A stretch of DNA of 37,455 nucleotides from a virus. The translations under genes were made by a program, and so were the position numbers. Of the stretch, positions 2,939-25,612 are shown piece after piece (position 1 is the first letter of the stretch; every line of letters begins with the position of its first letter). Location of the stretch: IMG/VR virus record IMGVR_UViG_3300046009_002136, positions 1 to 37,455 of that record; one strand, written 5' to 3'. The notes beneath the pieces are model-generated. The model worked only from the letters and a program-made list of their open reading frames with translations, made no database searches and had not been told where the DNA came from.

Positions 2939-3190
2939 ATCCTCTATAATCACAACATCTTCATACCGCAGTATCTTATAATACTCTCCTTTGTACGTTA
3001 TATCACTAGAGCGATAACCATCGAACCATACAATATCTCCAACACACACATTCTTTGTTAAATCTCCAAAGGCAATTACCTCTCCTCTCTTATACTTAAC
3101 ATCCTTTGTTTCCCCTAAGAAAATCCCTCCGGAGGAGACAGCATCTTCAACTATCTCCTTCATAATTACATTAAATCCTGTACACTTCAT
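2936..3190 (-). CDS. groES: Co-chaperonin GroES (Cpn10)
   Basis: An 84-aa GroES-fold protein. The mobile loop is visible as SSGGIFLGE (residues 19-27; the bacterial consensus is GGIVL). It is followed by the beta-barrel signature KRGEVIAFGDL, then CVGDIVWFDGY and a C-terminal strand KILRYEDVVIIED. It is shorter than typical bacterial GroES (about 95 aa). The ATG overlaps the groEL stop by one base (TAATG), so the two are co-transcribed and probably coupled. The order is groEL then groES, opposite to the usual bacterial operon. It should cap the phage GroEL, or possibly the host one. Confidence 0.93.
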   Translation of the reverse strand: MKCTGFNVIMKEIVEDAVSSGGIFLGETKDVKYKRGEVIAFGDLTKNVCVGDIVWFDGYRSSDITYKGEYYKILRYEDVVIIED

Positions 3191-4761
3191 TATTTCTCTC
3201 TTTTATAAGTTATAGCAACATTTGTCATTAATACAGTGCAAGCAACCGATACCGCATTCTCTAAAGCACATCTAATCACTTTAGATGGATCTATAATTCC
3301 TTGAGAAACCATATCTTTAACCAACACATAATCCTTAACATCATAACCCTCAAATTCGCTCTCTAATGACACGTAATCTTCAGCCGATAACTCTACGCCT
3401 GCATTACGAATTATTGTCTCAAATGGAGCGTATAGAGCTTCTCGCAGGATAAGTTCTCCTTCGGTCAAACCTTTTAATGTTAATGCTGCTCTAAGTAATG
3501 TCATTCCACCTCCAATAACAACTCCTTCTGCTAAAGCAGCTCTTACAGCGTGAATTGCATCATCAACTCTATCAATCTTTTCTTTAAGCTCTGATTCCGT
3601 ATTCCCACCGACCTTAACAACCGATACTCCGCAAGCTAATTTAGCAACTCTATCTCTTAAATACTCTTTCTCTAGTTTGTTAGTGCTATTCTTAATCACA
3701 GCCTCTAACTCATCAATCTTCCCTTTAATCTCTTCTGGGTTATTAGACTCTTTAAAGAATAATACAGTATCGGTTTTTGACACAGATAATTTACTACACC
3801 ATCCTAAAACATCTTTAGGGTCGTAGCTCTCAAGATTTGTATTTGTATCTACATCTAAAACTAATCCACCGGTAGCTAATTTAATGTCGGTTAAGTATTC
3901 TCTACGCTTCTCTCCTACAGACGGAGGAGTAATTACAGCTACTTTTAATCCATTATTCTTCTTGTTTACATATAAAGTCTTCATAACATCATATTCCATC
4001 TCTGAAATAATTAAAAGCTCTTTATTTTCTTTGTAACATACCTCTAAGAATGGTAAAATCTCCTTAATTGCTTGAATTTTTCTATTAGAAAGCAAGATAT
4101 ATGGAGCTTCGTTAAACTCAATCATTCTTTTCTCAGGAACATTAACAAATCCTTCAAACTCCCAACCTCTTTCTACCGGCATACCATCAATAAATTCAAC
4201 ATAGGTCTTCTCGTTCTCTGATTCCTCATAAGACACAACTCCATTCTTACCTGCCTTGATAAAAGCATCTGCGATAACCTCTCCTAGCTCATTGTCATTG
4301 TTAGATGATATTTTAGCTATATCAAAGATAAATTCGTCTTTAATCGGGATTGTATTCTCTTTTATGTACTGAACAACCTTGTCTTTAGATTTCTCTAACT
4401 CCATTTTAATGTCGATAGCTGAAGATCCATTCTGAACATACTTATTCGATATGTTAATTAAGTTTTGAGATAATACAGCAGTATTACTTGTACCGTCTCC
4501 TGCTTCATCTACAGTCTTTTGGCAAGCTTGTTTTATAAACTCACAACCTAAACTCTCTACAGCATCTTCAAGGAATATTGCTTTAGCTACAGAAACACCA
4601 TCTTTAGTTGGTAAAGGGAAACCTCCAGGACTCTCGATAAGTACCGTTCTGCCTCGATACCCCATAGTAGATGCTACTGCATCACATACGATATTAATAC
4701 CCTTGATTAAAGGAGCTTTAGCATCCTCGTTAAACCTAACGTCTTTAATTGGACTATTCAT
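3190..4761 (-). CDS. groEL: Chaperonin GroEL (Cpn60), phage-encoded
   Basis: A full-length 523-aa group I chaperonin. Nucleotide-site motifs are intact: TKDGVSVAK (52-60, Asp54 equivalent to E. coli Asp52), GDGTS (88-92, Asp89 equivalent to Asp87; consensus GDGTT), and VDDAIHAVRAALAEGVVIGGG near 399-419 with Asp401 matching the hydrolytic Asp398. The apical domain (about 190-370) keeps hydrophobic substrate-binding positions (RGW, IKEILPFLE, MKTLYVN). The equatorial end IDPSKVIRCALENAVSVA is canonical, but the protein ends in AITYKREK without the GGM-rich tail. It is transcribed leftward from a divergent promoter region. It is likely to fold phage structural proteins. The pattern looks like an active chaperonin. 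Confidence 0.96.
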   Translation of the reverse strand: MNSPIKDVRFNEDAKAPLIKGINIVCDAVASTMGYRGRTVLIESPGGFPLPTKDGVSVAKAIFLEDAVESLGCEFIKQACQKTVDEAGDGTSNTAVLSQNLINISNKYVQNGSSAIDIKMELEKSKDKVVQYIKENTIPIKDEFIFDIAKISSNNDNELGEVIADAFIKAGKNGVVSYEESENEKTYVEFIDGMPVERGWEFEGFVNVPEKRMIEFNEAPYILLSNRKIQAIKEILPFLEVCYKENKELLIISEMEYDVMKTLYVNKKNNGLKVAVITPPSVGEKRREYLTDIKLATGGLVLDVDTNTNLESYDPKDVLGWCSKLSVSKTDTVLFFKESNNPEEIKGKIDELEAVIKNSTNKLEKEYLRDRVAKLACGVSVVKVGGNTESELKEKIDRVDDAIHAVRAALAEGVVIGGGMTLLRAALTLKGLTEGELILREALYAPFETIIRNAGVELSAEDYVSLESEFEGYDVKDYVLVKDMVSQGIIDPSKVIRCALENAVSVACTVLMTNVAITYKREK

Positions 4762-9410: not shown

Positions 9411-10186
9411 TGGCTGTATTCGGAAATAAGATGATACCATTTGAAAGTGCGATTACTTTTGATGTTGACTATCAAGCTATTTTAGATTATGCAACAACAC
9501 AAGGATACACTTTACCAAGTCCAGGACAACAAATAAAACAAAATACTCTTTTAAGTAGTTTGAAAACTTTAGGAATTTGGGGTAAGTTAGATTCTTTTGC
9601 AAACTTTGCTACTGATGGGAATTCTAATTTTGCTTTAATAGATTGGAAGAATTTAACTCAATACACGGCTGTTAATAGTCCAACTTTTACATCTAATGTA
9701 GGGTTTTTAACAAATGGTACAAATAGTTATATTAATACGAATAAAGCACCTGGTCCAAATTTTATTTTAAATAGCGCATCTGAATTTAAATGGGTAAATA
9801 ATAATATAGATACTAGTGGAGGAAGCATAGTTTCAGGTGCAAGAAGTACAAGTGCTACAGCTAATTTATATGAGGTTACTGCAATAGCATTATTTGTGAA
9901 TAGCAATATTTCATTAACTTTCAGTGCTAATACCTTAGCAGGTTTTAGACATATAAATAGACCAAATAGTACACAAGCTCAACGATTTGTAAATGGAGTT
10001 GGTCTAACAGGAACTCAAGCATCTACAGTAGTGGTTAATAGAATCCCATTTATAGGAGCTTTAAATAATGGTTCAGCTGTTTTTTTTGAATCAAATTCAT
10101 TTTCGATATATGGATTTGGAGGAGATTTAAGTGCAGAAGCCACAGATTTTTATAATGCTATTAACACTTATATAACATCTTTATAA
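9410..10186 (+). CDS. Tail appendage protein, LamG/concanavalin-like
   Basis: A 258-aa protein. The N-terminus has a helical segment (residues about 18-60, with LPSPGQQIKQNTLLSSLKTL) leading to GIWGKLDSFANFATDGNSNF and ALIDWKN. It then has a beta-rich body (about 85-240) with Ser/Asn/Gly turns resembling a concanavalin/LamG-like jelly roll. The G.W.KLD.F..FATDG.....IDWKN signature recurs in Flavobacteriia phage tail proteins as far as I recall. It probably binds cell-surface glycans or forms part of the appendage. Confidence 0.78.
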   Translation: MAVFGNKMIPFESAITFDVDYQAILDYATTQGYTLPSPGQQIKQNTLLSSLKTLGIWGKLDSFANFATDGNSNFALIDWKNLTQYTAVNSPTFTSNVGFLTNGTNSYINTNKAPGPNFILNSASEFKWVNNNIDTSGGSIVSGARSTSATANLYEVTAIALFVNSNISLTFSANTLAGFRHINRPNSTQAQRFVNGVGLTGTQASTVVVNRIPFIGALNNGSAVFFESNSFSIYGFGGDLSAEATDFYNAINTYITSL

Positions 10187-22867: not shown

Positions 22868-22888
22868 ATAATTTAAACATTAAACTAA

Positions 22889-22917
22889 AAAGAGAGGTAT
22901 TTAGCCTCTCTTTTTTT
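22889..22917. terminator. Bidirectional intrinsic terminator after MCP
   Basis: AAAGAGAGG and CCTCTCTTT form a 9-bp stem with loop TATTTAG, followed by a run of T to 22917. The A-run on the left makes it function in both directions. It ends the capsid transcript and the leftward island transcript whose last stop codon (TAA, complement at 22916) lies in the T-run. Confidence 0.9.
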
Positions 22918-23113
22918 ATTCCTTAAACCTAAAAGTAGTTTTATTCTTATTCTTTCCATTTAGCTTTTGAGACAACCATGTTCTGCATTTACCTACAGAT
23001 TCCGCAGCGTCTTTAATCGAGAAAAAAACTTCTCCTGTTTCTGTATTTACAACTCTTTTACTTATAAGCCTCCAATTATGAAGGTTTATACTACACAATA
23101 AATTTCTCCACAT
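22916..23113 (-). CDS. Stand-alone NUMOD/IENR-like DNA-binding protein
   Basis: A 65-aa protein with RVVNTETGEVFFSIKDAAES then VGKCRTWLSQKLNGKNKNKT and TFRF. This is the signature of the NUMOD1/IENR1 repeats that bind DNA at the end of HNH homing endonucleases (V.NTETGE.F.SI..AA...G....LS..LNG..KN.T.F.F). No nuclease domain is present, so it is a degraded homing-endonuclease tail or a small DNA-binding regulator. It starts 2 nt after the stop of the 57-aa gene upstream. Confidence 0.8.
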   Translation of the reverse strand: MWRNLLCSINLHNWRLISKRVVNTETGEVFFSIKDAAESVGKCRTWLSQKLNGKNKNKTTFRFKE

Positions 23114-23115
23114 AG

Positions 23116-23289
23116 TTATAATATTTCGTTTAATTTTTCAAAATCTATAAAATTTATTTCTTTAGCTTGTTCAAAAGTTATATTTAATGTTTTTACAGAT
23201 GTACCTTTTTCATATAGTATATCTATTGTTTGAGTTTCTAATTTTATTTTTAAATCTCTTACTTTTATTCCGCTTTTTAAAATTTTCAT
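23116..23289 (-). CDS. 57-aa protein, unknown function
   Basis: A 57-aa open frame starting with ATG at 23289 and ending with TAA 2 nt before the next ATG (23113). The product is Lys/Ile/Leu-rich (KSGIKVRDLKIKLE ... KTLNITFEQAKEINFIDF), with no recognised family. It is too short for the length cut-off used for long frames, but tight packing with both neighbours (1-nt gap upstream, 2-nt gap downstream) argues that it is translated. Confidence 0.6.
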   Translation of the reverse strand: MKILKSGIKVRDLKIKLETQTIDILYEKGTSVKTLNITFEQAKEINFIDFEKLNEIL

Positions 23290-23290
23290 A

Positions 23291-23383
23291 TTACTCGTTT
23301 GCTTTTCTAATTAAATAATCAAATAACCAAATAACTTTTGGTCTTATAAATTCATAAGCTAGCCAAATTAAAATGTATTTCAT
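23291..23383 (-). CDS. 30-aa hydrophobic micropeptide
   Basis: A 30-codon frame (MKYILIWLAYEFIRPKVIWL then a short basic end). A hydrophobic stretch with Trp and Ile followed by Arg/Lys suggests a membrane-associated peptide. It sits between the 57-aa gene (1-nt gap) and the 105-aa gene (7-nt gap) in one leftward cluster. Short peptides can appear by chance; spacing and composition raise the odds that it is real. Confidence 0.45.
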   Translation of the reverse strand: MKYILIWLAYEFIRPKVIWLFDYLIRKANE

Positions 23384-23390
23384 AACTGTT

Positions 23391-23708
23391 TTATTTTATA
23401 TCAGAAATCCTTAATCCTTTTACATAAGAATAGTAATTAATTGCTTTCCCTTGATTATCAAAATTATCCCAAAACCAATCGAAAATCATCCCTTTAGGAG
23501 CATCTAATTCTAAATCTACTCTAATATCCTCAAACGATAAAAAAGCGTCTGAGAAGCAGTTAATCCCTCCCTTTATATCTCCTATCCAACCTTCAGCATA
23601 AACCTCTTGTTTTTCACAAAATAAATCAGTGTATAAATCAATACAGTTATCTAGTCTTTCTTTTATTTCTGAAATAGAAATGTTAATTGATTTTGGTTTT
23701 GTTTTCAT
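23391..23708 (-). CDS. 105-aa protein of unknown function
   Basis: An acidic 105-aa protein with a helical N-terminus (SISEIKERLDNCIDLYTDL), a central GWIGDIKGGINCFSDAF and an aromatic C-terminal region (GMIFDWFWDNFDNQ). I recognise no family. It heads the leftward cluster ending at 22916 and lies just downstream of the tRNA-like genes, so they may be co-transcribed. Confidence 0.7.
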   Translation of the reverse strand: MKTKPKSINISISEIKERLDNCIDLYTDLFCEKQEVYAEGWIGDIKGGINCFSDAFLSFEDIRVDLELDAPKGMIFDWFWDNFDNQGKAINYYSYVKGLRISDIK

Positions 23709-23734
23709 AATTTTGTTTTATAAGTTAATATTAG

Positions 23735-23820
23735 TGGTGCAGACAAGATTCGAACTTGTATTGTTGTTACATCATTCGCATTCATTAGCGAATATCGTCT
23801 ACCATTTCCGACACTGCACC
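23735..23820 (-). tRNA. tRNA-Leu-like gene with aberrant anticodon arm
   Basis: An 86-nt cloverleaf on the minus strand. The acceptor stem is GGTGCAG/CTGCACC (7 bp) with discriminator A; D-arm TCG-GAAATGGTAGA-CGA is of Leu type; the T-arm is ACAAG-TTCGAAT-CTTGT. The variable region is long (ATGTAACAACAAT), as in class II tRNAs. The anticodon arm is odd: 6-bp stem ATTCGC/GCGAAT with an 8-nt loop TAATGAAT (or 5 bp with a 10-nt loop). TAA is present but the preceding base is C, not the invariant U33; reading from the only U33 gives AAT. CCA is not encoded. Function is uncertain. Confidence 0.6.
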
Positions 23821-23855
23821 ATTTTCACTGTACTATCTGAGTCAAGTGAATGCTG

Positions 23856-23935
23856 TTCAGAGGGACGGACTCGAACCGTATAAGCAACCTTTTTAAAGGA
23901 CTCGGACACCATTTCCTTATTACGCCCACCTCCGA
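23856..23935 (-). tRNA. Irregular tRNA-like structure
   Basis: The acceptor stem TCGGAGG/CCTCTGA (7 bp, one G-U) and T-arm ACGG-TTCGAGT-CCGT are well formed. In between, the D-region is about 7 nt too long and contains GGAAATGGTGTCC, while the candidate anticodon stem AGTCC/AGGTT has one C-A mismatch and two G-U pairs around loop TTTAAAA (anticodon would be TAA). A Thr-like arm (CTTGTAA loop) lies just outside, 23936-23960. This may be a degenerate tRNA array or a non-standard tRNA. A tRNA gene call is tentative. Confidence 0.35.
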
Positions 23936-23994
23936 CCTTTACAAGAGATGTTCTAAGTGCTAGCAAGACAAATAGACTGGGACACATTGTAAAT

Positions 23995-24615
23995 TTATTT
24001 TTTTAGATTGTAATTATATTCCGGATAACAAGCTCTAAAAACATCTATATGGTAAAGATTTTGAAATCCATACCTAGGAGATTCTGCTTTTTTAATTAAA
24101 TACCCTAACTCTGTACTAACCTCTTTTAGTTTTCTCCAATTAAACTTCTTTTCATGGACTTTGTTGTGTTTAGCTACTTTTAAGATAGACACCCATTCAA
24201 GTAGATTATCCAGTACTGTGTTTAGATTCTCTGTTTTAGCTTCTAACAATTCAATTTGCTCTTGTTGTTGTAGAGCTAATATCAAAGCTTCTTTTAGGGT
24301 TTTAGGAGCTTTAGATTGTAATTGCTTCTCACATTCTATAAAGTAAGCCCTAGCTTGCTTTCCTTTATCAGTACGCTGAATCATAGAGATTTCTTTCGCC
24401 ATACTAAAAGACACTGCGTAATTCATAACCTCTTGATTAGCAAGGGTGTTAAACTCTTTACACCCTATATAATCTTCGTTTTCAATAAAGCCATACTGCA
24501 ATTGTCTCTCGAACCAAGTGGAAAATCTTTCTGTACTCTCTAAAAATTTATGCAACTCTCTTGCACTTACTACTTGCTTGCCATTCTCTTCTGTAACCTT
24601 AATTAATTCGTTCAT
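23995..24615 (-). CDS. AntA/AntB-family antirepressor
   Basis: A 206-aa protein. Residues about 12-75 (VSARELHKFLESTERFSTWF ... NEDYIGCKEFNTLANQ) match the AntA/AntB antirepressor domain, including the ELHKFL start. The C-terminal half (about 100-206) is helical with a coiled coil and the WRKLKEVSTELGYLIKK stretch resembling KilA-C/ORF6C-like DNA-binding domains. Such proteins bind and inactivate lysogeny repressors. No repressor or integrase is visible in this window, so its target is unknown. It is preceded by a leftward promoter and an intrinsic hairpin terminator. Confidence 0.9.
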   Translation of the reverse strand: MNELIKVTEENGKQVVSARELHKFLESTERFSTWFERQLQYGFIENEDYIGCKEFNTLANQEVMNYAVSFSMAKEISMIQRTDKGKQARAYFIECEKQLQSKAPKTLKEALILALQQQEQIELLEAKTENLNTVLDNLLEWVSILKVAKHNKVHEKKFNWRKLKEVSTELGYLIKKAESPRYGFQNLYHIDVFRACYPEYNYNLKK

Positions 24616-24628
24616 GTTTTTTTATTTT

Positions 24629-24726
24629 AAAAAGAGAAAACCTCTAACAATGCACTACTACTGTTAAAGGTTTCTCTGTTACACTAAATAAATAGCGTTA
24701 AACTTTTGATGTCTGTAGTGCTTCGA
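24629..24726 (-). ncRNA. Candidate 97-nt RNA / attenuator before the antirepressor
   Basis: On the minus strand a -7 box (TATATTTG, 24740-24733) is followed after 11 nt by seed GCACTAC (24721-24715), then by an intrinsic terminator: arms 24676-24662 and 24649-24634 (14 bp, one bulge, one C-A mismatch) and a run of five T (24633-24629). The 12-nt terminator loop contains GTAGTGC (24658-24652), a perfect complement of the seed. Seed-loop pairing and the terminator can both form or compete. The antirepressor ATG is 14 nt beyond the T-run, so it is either an attenuated leader or a stand-alone small RNA. Confidence 0.6.
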
Positions 24727-24732
24727 CAAGTA

Positions 24733-24740
24733 CAAATATA
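24733..24740 (-). promoter_or_regulatory. Leftward -7 box (TATATTTG)
   Basis: Minus-strand TATATTTG at 24740-24733, predicting a start near 24726. It drives the candidate RNA and, through read-through, the antirepressor. The match is to the TAnnTTTG element only; no -33 TTG identified. Confidence 0.5.
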
Positions 24741-24768
24741 AGGATTAATATTTGATTTTGGGTTAAAT

Positions 24769-24967
24769 TCTACAAAAAAAGTCTTTTAATCTGCAATTAA
24801 CTTGATTCTATACTTTTTGCCAAAATTGGCGTAAAGTCTAAATTATATTCCAACTTAGCTCTTTTTGAATTATATCTAATATTAAATAATCAACACTTGG
24901 GCTACCTTCAGTACTTTTCCCCTTTTAGGGTGTAAAGTATATATCTACAAAAAAAGTCTTTTAATCT
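24769..24967. repeat. 24-bp direct repeat pair
   Basis: TCTACAAAAAAAGTCTTTTA plus ATCT occurs at 24769-24792 and again at 24944-24967, 175 bp apart. The second copy forms the last codons of the 63-aa gene (24945-25136), so the first copy may be the remnant of a duplicated gene end or a shared processing or termination element. DNA between the copies has two hairpins: GCCAA/TTGGC near 24820 and TACTTT/AAAGTA at 24912-24939. Confidence 0.75.
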
Positions 24968-25136
24968 TGTAATACATCTTCTTTCTTTCCCTATCTATAG
25001 ACTTAACTTTGTCATCTATACATCTCTTATTATCATACCTTAACCTATTAACCTCAGTTTGTAACTCTTTATTCTCATCTGATAGTTTCTTTAGTCTTGT
25101 GTATTCAGACATCGTAATAGTAATTGTTGTTTCCAT
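24945..25136 (-). CDS. Small coiled-coil protein
   Basis: A 63-aa protein: a short beta-like start (METTITITMSEYTRLKKL) followed by a charged heptad helix (SDENKELQTEVNRLRYDNKR) and a basic C-terminus. Probably a dimeric helical protein. Function unknown; small coiled-coil accessory phage proteins are often regulators. A possible leftward promoter with TTTTG and TAACTTTA lies about 25-60 nt upstream but is weak. Confidence 0.65.
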   Translation of the reverse strand: METTITITMSEYTRLKKLSDENKELQTEVNRLRYDNKRCIDDKVKSIDRERKKMYYKIKRLFL

Positions 25137-25441
25137 GTTGCTTGTGAGTTATATTATATTTAAAGTTATATGTTAATGTTGTTCTACTTCAAAAGAAAAA
25201 TAGAGAAAAGAGAGAGAATAAAACAACCGTAAGAAAATAAGAGAGAGAAAAGAGAGAAAAAGAAAAAGCTCCCCCAATAAAAACAAAGTGTGTCTCTTTC
25301 CTCAATAGAGGGGTTTACCTGGTCCAATATATTTTCATATAAAGTCTGAACTCTTCAAATACACATCTTCATTAGTGTACCTAAGTATTATCTCTATCAA
25401 ATCGGTATTGTGTTTAAGTTGTACATATTGCGTTGTTTAAT

Positions 25442-25537
25442 AAAAAAGAAAAACCCCTAACTAGGGACGCAATCTAGTTAAGGGAGTCTATGTGTTTTAT
25501 CGTTGGACACCTACTATCATAGGTTTGCGTCCAATGA
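25442..25537 (-). ncRNA. Candidate 96-nt structured small RNA
   Basis: On the minus strand: -7 box TATCTTTG (25551-25544), predicted start near 25537, seed GGACGCAA (25532-25525) after 11 nt. A 5' hairpin follows: outer 10-bp stem between 25538-25529 and 25508-25499 (one G-U), inner CCTA/TAGG, and bulged GCAAA carrying half of the seed. Next is an intrinsic terminator: TAACTAG/CTAGTTA plus CCC/GGG with one bulge (25484-25455), then TTTTTCTTTTTT (25453-25442). The 9-nt terminator loop ATTGCGTCC perfectly complements the seed (8 bp). Discrete promoter, two stems and terminator make a complete small-RNA unit. Confidence 0.65.
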
Positions 25538-25543
25538 TATAGG

Positions 25544-25551
25544 CAAAGATA
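25544..25551 (-). promoter_or_regulatory. Leftward -7 box (TATCTTTG) for the small RNA
   Basis: Minus-strand TATCTTTG at 25551-25544 predicts initiation at about 25537, the foot of the 5' hairpin. It is divergent from the rightward box at 25575-25582, 24 bp away. Confidence 0.55.
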
Positions 25552-25574
25552 CAAATACTATTTATATATTTCAC

Positions 25575-25582
25575 TATCTTTG
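25575..25582 (+). promoter_or_regulatory. Rightward -7 box (TATCTTTG)
   Basis: TATCTTTG 30 nt upstream of the ATG at 25613, followed by an A/T-rich leader. This gives the 25613 gene its own transcript, which ends at the terminator at 26371-26401. Confidence 0.65.
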
Positions 25583-25612
25583 TAAAAATATTTTAATTAA
25601 AATCAAAAAATT

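What the first reader, a model, noticed from the sequence alone, without database searches (positions are those of the whole stretch)
24629..25551. Two same-design minus-strand RNAs: seed complementary to its own terminator loop
Two intergenic units on the minus strand are built alike. Unit 1: -7 box 25551-25544, seed GGACGCAA at 25532-25525, terminator loop ATTGCGTCC at 25473-25465. Unit 2: -7 box 24740-24733, seed GCACTAC at 24721-24715, terminator loop containing GTAGTGC at 24658-24652. The box-to-seed gap is 11 nt in both, the predicted transcripts are both about 97 nt, and seed and loop complement perfectly, although sequences differ. Shared architecture with diverged sequence suggests a family, for example self-sequestering small RNAs, kissing-loop attenuators or an interference/entry switch. 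I know of no described family with this layout.
Basis: partly seen in the sequence, partly recalled or inferred. Interest (0 to 1): 0.82.

Follow-up and report, generated by a model that had tools for sequence, protein, structure and literature searches.

The report
Self-matching leader RNAs controlling phage antirepressors
Two short RNA elements in this Bacteroidota phage belong to a widespread, previously uncatalogued set of switches in front of phage antirepressor genes; an early stretch of each RNA matches the tip of its own terminator hairpin, and evolution preserves that match while changing the letters, much as in the antisense RNA that controls the antirepressor of phage P1.

Summary
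It is also not unique to this phage. I found at least 27 further units with the same design in Bacteroidota phages and prophages, nearly all upstream of antirepressor-type genes (AntA, Rha, BRO-N). They comprise a conserved group A (19 units) and a looser group B (10, including the window's two).

The seed-loop match is a real RNA pairing. In a 14-member alignment all 84 pair cells are Watson-Crick, 26 of them changed on both sides; sliding the partners by one column drops pairing to 42-50%.

Group A's order (a, b, stem, b', a') is that of the C4 antisense system of phages P1/P7 and its a1b1 target. Rfam's C4 model does not match it. Here the antisense hairpin is itself the terminator and, in nearly all cases, no second target lies at the start codon.

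Best reading: a compact C4-like, self-specific antisense/attenuator switch for antirepressor expression and probably immunity specificity. Pairing, family and gene context are shown by computation; transcription, trans action and effect on the gene are inferred.

The parts
25544..25551 (-). Unit 1 promoter -7 box TATCTTTG (Bacteroidota type TAnnTTTG)
   Evidence: sequence
25515..25539 (-). Unit 1 5' hairpin TATCAT[TGGACGCAAACCT]ATGATA with the seed GGACGCAA (25525-25532) in its loop; competes with a more stable hairpin that pairs GGAC with a downstream GTCC
25449..25484 (-). Unit 1 intrinsic terminator, 11-bp stem CCCTTAACTAG/CTAGTTAGGGG plus T run; loop ATTGCGTCC (25465-25473) is the antiseed
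25427..25433 (-). Possible second target of the unit 1 loop: ACGCAAT directly before the ATG of a 9-codon ORF (7 nt, weak)
24945..25136 (-). First gene of useful length after unit 1: 63-aa coiled-coil-like protein, no family match and no relative found
24733..24740 (-). Unit 2 promoter -7 box TATATTTG
24710..24728 (-). Unit 2 5' hairpin TGTC[GAAGCACTACA]GACA with the seed GCACTAC (24715-24721) in its loop
24629..24677 (-). Unit 2 intrinsic terminator with antiseed GTAGTGC (24652-24658) in its loop; ends about 17 nt before the ant start codon
23995..24615 (-). AntA/AntB antirepressor gene (206 aa) directly downstream of unit 2
   Evidence: Pfam AntA E=1e-22; PHROG anti-repressor Ant

Best explanation
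The units are compact C4-like leader RNAs of antirepressor genes. Transcription starts just upstream of a 5' hairpin that displays a target sequence (a; in group A also b). It then passes an antisense hairpin whose tip carries the complement (a'; in group A b' then a'). The antisense hairpin's basal stem is also an intrinsic terminator, so the usual product is a ~100-nt terminated RNA carrying both target and antisense. Proposed mechanism: in a naive cell the nascent 5' target pairs with the emerging antisense tip before the terminator's 3' arm is made. This delays termination and lets some transcripts run on into the antirepressor gene. Once terminated RNAs accumulate (established phage or lysogen) they bind the same sites on new nascent leaders in trans; the terminator then wins and the antirepressor stays off. 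Because pairing depends on the exact seed, each unit would recognise only itself and its own allele, giving C4-like immunity specificity. Shown by computation: anatomy, covariation, gene context, specificity of predicted pairing, switch of predicted fold. Inferred: transcription, termination efficiency, trans action, direction of the effect.
For: Covariation: group A seed/antiseed 84/84 cells paired, 26 double changes against 8.6 in shuffles, 0/500; slid partners pair in 14-50% of cells; 0/20000 permutations reach the observed match length. A second pairing, linker with the P3 loop, covaries more weakly (47/20000). Context: 16 of 17 group A units directly precede antirepressor-type genes, ATG 6-20 nt after the hairpin where measured; the exception, L430, has an HNH endonuclease gene there. 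Group B: window unit 2, L082, L083, L479, L481, L495, L499, L506 and L511 lie upstream of AntA or BRO-N antirepressor genes. A TAnnTTTG-type box lies 5-6 nt upstream of 15 of 17 group A units. Specificity: predicted 5'-domain/tip duplexes are -15.9 kcal/mol for own pairs and -10.4 for cross pairs (0/20000 permutations). Window units: own -13.7 and -12.3, cross -3.5 and -4.0. Alleles: L479 and L481/L482 have 99% identical antirepressor proteins and near-identical DNA just upstream of the gene, but unrelated seeds. One 52.6-kb phage (G400) has five units, all with different seeds. Natural variants L484 and L494 keep pairing through G-U. Switch: about 18 of 22 nascent folds truncated before the terminator's 3' arm contain the seed/antiseed helix; nearly all full-length folds contain the terminator instead, L264 being the exception. 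C4 order: in L108 an Rfam C4 hit has antisense CTGTCAA directly 3' of its second hairpin, matching TTGACAG in a1b1; group A has the same order. L264 has 16 nt of tip complementarity to the ant start codon, and L257, L483, L496 and L497 show comparable matches: links towards C4.
Against: No expression data of any kind. In three dimensions the seed/antiseed helix and the terminator might coexist as a pseudoknot, so antitermination is not established. Group A and the window units lack a clear start-codon target, which C4 has. Unit 1 is not directly in front of an antirepressor gene. Rfam's C4 model does not match any of these units. No antirepressor was found in 13 records related to the window phage by its capsid-region protein, so it may have acquired the cassette, and its lifestyle is unknown.
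Confidence: 0.6

Rival explanations
1. Trans antisense without attenuation: the terminated RNA works like C4 or P22 sar. Its loop binds the 5' hairpin of read-through antirepressor mRNA and triggers decay or blocks translation, with no role for cis pairing in termination.
For: C4 acts in trans (PMC8546580, PMC5320573). L264, L257, L483, L496 and L497 have a second complementary site at the antirepressor start codon. Specific own-pair duplex energies.
Against: In group A and in unit 2 the only strong target is the TSS-proximal 5' region, about 80 nt upstream of the start codon and separated from it by a terminator, an odd place for a translation block.
Confidence: 0.2
2. Purely intramolecular structure: seed and loop form a kissing-loop pseudoknot that stabilises the terminator or the RNA, or builds a pocket for a protein or ligand. 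There is no self-recognition between molecules.
For: All pairings can be made within one molecule, and group A has conserved unpaired nucleotides (GGUUU, GCC, AAAA, AAGAYAUU) outside the seed.
Against: A structural helix need not differ in sequence between five units of one phage, or between prophages with 99% identical antirepressors; such allele turnover is typical of specificity determinants.
Confidence: 0.17
3. The terminated RNAs are regulators of host or rival-phage mRNAs and merely use the antirepressor promoter region.
For: Phage sRNAs with other targets exist (review PMC12197685), and the seeds are variable.
Against: The one constant complementary partner is the unit's own leader; the downstream gene is almost always an antirepressor.
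Confidence: 0.03

Closest known systems
C4 antisense RNA of phages P1/P7 with its c4-a1b1 target (Rfam RF01695, RF03163)
   Same: Controls antirepressor genes; target sequences a, b lie upstream in the same transcript and antisense b', a' in a downstream hairpin, with a' directly 3' of the inner hairpin; variable specificity sequence; small allele differences set P1/P7 heteroimmunity (PMC5320573, PMC12197685).
   Different: Bacteroidota hosts and promoters; target and antisense fused within ~105 nt; the antisense basal stem is the terminator; group A lacks C4's tetraloop hairpin and a start-codon target; no Rfam C4 match; RNase P processing unknown.
sar antisense RNA of phage P22
   Same: Small RNA that holds down antirepressor synthesis (PMC12197685).
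   Different: As I recall, sar is encoded antisense to the ant transcript; the present RNAs are the leader of the antirepressor transcript itself.
Antisense-controlled transcription attenuators of plasmids such as pT181
   Same: Loop-loop RNA recognition deciding between terminator and read-through; orthogonal alleles (PMC3753616).
   Different: In pT181 a separate counter-transcript is the antisense; here the leader carries both target and antisense.
C4-like sRNA group of Acinetobacter baumannii
   Same: Many paralogues in one genome that differ in the target-specifying loop (PMC5320573).
   Different: Those match the C4 model and sit in a bacterial chromosome; these do not match it and sit in phage antirepressor leaders.

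Membership tests
C4 antisense RNA (RF01695) | Covariance-model match at gathering score | tested here: not met
   No C4 hit in the window or in members of groups A and B, down to E of 5-8 on selected loci; the same search finds C4 in L108.
C4 antisense RNA (RF01695) | Sits upstream of an antirepressor gene | tested here: met
   unit 1 and L430 are exceptions.
C4 antisense RNA (RF01695) | Two antisense segments complementary to two target segments (a/a', b/b') | tested here: inconclusive
   Group A: a/a' strongly covarying, b/b' weaker; window units show a/a' only.
C4 antisense RNA (RF01695) | Target at the ribosome-binding site or start codon | tested here: not met
   Mean own match equals cross match for group A and unit 2; only L264, L257, L483, L496 and L497 have it, unit 1 weakly (7 nt).
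C4 antisense RNA (RF01695) | Basal stem with two inner hairpins | tested here: not met
   Group A predicted folds have one inner hairpin; window units have a simple loop.
C4 antisense RNA (RF01695) | RNase P processing to ~77 nt | not testable with these tools
   Needs RNA ends.
Antisense-controlled transcription attenuator (pT181 type) | Mutually exclusive terminator and upstream pairing | tested here: inconclusive
   Nascent and full-length minimum-energy folds differ as expected in most members, but coexistence as a pseudoknot is not excluded.
Antisense-controlled transcription attenuator (pT181 type) | Trans RNA changes termination | not testable with these tools
   Needs transcription assays.
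Any Rfam 15 family | Curated family match | tested here: not met
   No credible match other than tRNA for the units.

The most novel reading that the evidence does not exclude
A separate class of self-recognising leader RNA, not derived from C4: each antirepressor transcript carries a hypervariable loop and its own complement on the terminator, so terminated leaders act as allele-specific immunity factors. Phages collect several orthogonal copies and exchange alleles in front of otherwise near-identical antirepressor genes.
Probability: 0.35. Interest if true: 0.8.

Novelty: new variant of a known kind. Interest (0 to 1): 0.64.

Why it matters
Known RNA control of phage antirepressors rests on a few models (C4 in P1/P7, sar in P22). 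A covariation-supported family in Bacteroidota phages, including Bacteroides fragilis phage BF1-TP2, makes lysis-lysogeny control and RNA-based immunity testable in abundant gut bacteria. Allele switching upstream of near-identical antirepressors offers a natural test of whether short RNA loops set immunity groups, and a natural collection of orthogonal attenuators.

Tried and rejected
Chance: rejected. Interference or entry switch: no supporting feature seen. HDV-type or other self-cleaving ribozyme: considered because of the nested pseudoknot topology; no Rfam match, and the variable sequences lack a conserved catalytic core. Known riboswitch: no Rfam match. Window units as close sequence relatives of group A: not supported; R1 gives no hit on them, its only window hit being elsewhere at E 0.6. 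Members in sampled Bacteroidota genomes: R1 found nothing convincing in 396 genomes, and the group A pattern gave 3 isolated hits, at least one (L457) without the element. Relatives of the 63-aa protein: none. Riemerella, Fusobacterium and several other Bacteroides phage antirepressor leaders examined: no such unit. Start-codon target as a general feature of group A: not supported. The 5' hairpin around the group B seeds: shuffled flanks do as well in 3-57% of cases per unit, so it is suggestive only.

Full report
OBSERVATION. The two units are present exactly as described. With a strict detector (TAnnTTTG box, terminator hairpin with T run, at least 7 nt of perfect complement between loop and 5' part), the window has three box-led terminators, two of which are these units; 150 first-order (dinucleotide) Markov-shuffled windows contain none. 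Unit 2 is the leader of an AntA-family antirepressor gene, 23995-24615, with its terminator ending about 17 nt before the start codon. Unit 1 precedes a 63-aa gene without known relatives. The minus-strand cassette 22868-25612 sits between plus-strand structural genes and is missing from the nearest related contig, L001, where the corresponding genes are 87 bp apart.

THE DESIGN RECURS. Upstream regions of related antirepressor genes show the same architecture with other letters: L082 (TGTCCAC/GTGGACA) and L083 (CATCTCAC/GTGAGATG), both directly in front of AntA genes. Scanning gave a well-conserved group A, with consensus box - GGUUU(seed)GCCNAAA - linker - AAGAYAUU - terminator stem - inner hairpin - antiseed - stem - U run. 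Seventeen members were extracted; two more are L450 and L219:749. A looser group B resembles the window units: window units 1 and 2, L082, L083, L479 (Bacteroides phage BF1-TP2), L481, L495, L499, L506 and L511. Downstream genes of group A are antirepressor types (AntA, Rha, BRO-N/KilAC), with the ATG 6-20 nt after the hairpin where measured; one exception, L430, has an HNH endonuclease gene there. Among 39 loci around BRO-N antirepressors, 5 of 10 strong terminators upstream of the gene have a match of 7 nt or more, against 1 of 17 elsewhere and about 1% for swapped loops.

THE PAIRING IS REAL. In 14 group A sequences with equal seed length, all 84 pair cells are standard pairs. Four of six pairs change on both sides, with up to three pair types each; 26 cells have double changes against 8.6 in shuffles, and sliding the partners destroys the signal. 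Over 17 sequences, no permutation of partners in 20000 reaches the observed match length. A second pairing, linker with the loop of the inner hairpin, is supported less strongly (47 of 20000). In group B, natural variants of one allele keep the pairing by G-U: L481 CCACAACA to L484 CCACGACA; L511 to L494 (pairs read by eye).

SPECIFICITY. Own 5'-domain/tip duplexes are on average 5.5 kcal/mol stronger than non-cognate ones. The two window units pair with themselves at -13.7 and -12.3 kcal/mol but with each other at only -3.5 and -4.0. A single 52.6-kb virus record (G400) carries five group A units, each with a different seed, although its predicted specificity is imperfect: own pairing is clearly strongest for three of the five. 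L479 and L481/L482 have 99% identical antirepressor proteins and near-identical DNA before the gene, but different seeds. This looks like turnover of a specificity determinant rather than conservation of a structural helix; that reading is inference.

A SWITCH IS PLAUSIBLE. When each RNA is folded only up to the antiseed, i.e. before the 3' arm of the terminator exists, the minimum-energy structure contains the seed/antiseed helix in about 18 of 22 cases. Full-length RNAs fold into terminator plus 5' hairpin, except L264, whose full-length fold keeps the seed helix, and the 5' hairpin is not in every fold. A secondary-structure program cannot say whether both helices can coexist as a pseudoknot. 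Unit 1 is one of the exceptions, because its 5' part prefers a local hairpin.

COMPARISON WITH C4. In the proteobacterial locus L108, Rfam finds C4 and its a1b1 target in front of an antirepressor. There the antisense CTGTCAA lies directly 3' of C4's second inner hairpin and matches TTGACAG in a1b1; the inner hairpin region TCGGTCTGT matches ACAGACCGA near the antirepressor start. Group A has the same order: a, b, basal stem, b' in the inner loop, a' directly after it. Several Bacteroidota loci look intermediate: L264 (tip complementary to 16 nt over the antirepressor start codon), L257 (Fibrisoma), L483, L496 and L497, with matches both upstream and at the start codon. C4 is a trans-acting antisense repressor of antirepressor synthesis, with loops a' and b', and a few loop differences set P1/P7 specificity (PMC5320573, PMC8546580, PMC12197685). 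I therefore call the present elements C4-like in working principle. They are not filed as C4: the Rfam model does not match, group A has no start-codon target and lacks one inner hairpin, and the antisense hairpin is itself the terminator.

MECHANISM AND LIMITS. Most likely the terminated leader is a self-specific antisense RNA that keeps antirepressor expression off once it has accumulated, by steering nascent leaders into termination. Simple trans antisense, or a purely intramolecular fold, remain possible. Nothing here shows transcription, termination, trans action or a phenotype. The set was collected through antirepressor genes and a group A sequence pattern, so frequency outside that context is not measured, although the pattern scan, which does not ask for an antirepressor, returned almost only antirepressor leaders among hits carrying the full element. 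No paper in the searched open library described these elements; most subscription papers are not held.

Noticed in passing
window 23734-23820 (-), and about 23850-23930 (-): A tRNA-like gene to which ARAGORN gives a four-base anticodon (atga), Rfam tRNA 38.9 bits, and just upstream a second stretch with a T-arm-like GGTTCGAGTCC that no tool called as a tRNA.
   Followed up: no
window 22868-25612: Minus-strand cassette (two units, antirepressor, tRNA-like gene, small ORFs) between plus-strand structural genes, absent from the related contig L001.
   Followed up: partly
window 24944-24967 and 24769-24792: Direct repeat of 24 nt (around GATTAAAAGACTTTTTTTGTAGA) at the end of the 63-aa gene and upstream of unit 2 (seen through the L081 match).
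   Followed up: no
window 3190-4761 (-): Phage-encoded GroEL-type chaperonin (PHROG E=1.6e-123).
   Followed up: no
window 25433-25427 (-): ACGCAAT, complementary to 7 nt of the unit 1 loop, directly before the ATG of a 9-codon ORF; resembles a C4 a2 site before a short leader ORF, but is weak.
   Followed up: partly
L257, L264, L483, L496, L497: C4-like arrangements in Bacteroidota with an antisense hairpin/terminator whose tip matches an upstream site and the antirepressor start codon; L257 has no Rfam C4 match, L264 had no C4 hit, the others were not tested.
   Followed up: partly
L430, directly downstream of the unit at 9855-9956 (-): An HNH endonuclease gene directly after a group A unit, where an antirepressor gene normally starts; possibly a homing insertion at this site.
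   Followed up: no
window 22916-23113 (-): Small ORF whose C-terminal part (SIKDAAESVGKCRTWLSQKLNGKNKNKTTFRF) resembles the NUMOD1-type repeats of homing endonucleases, from memory, untested.
   Followed up: no
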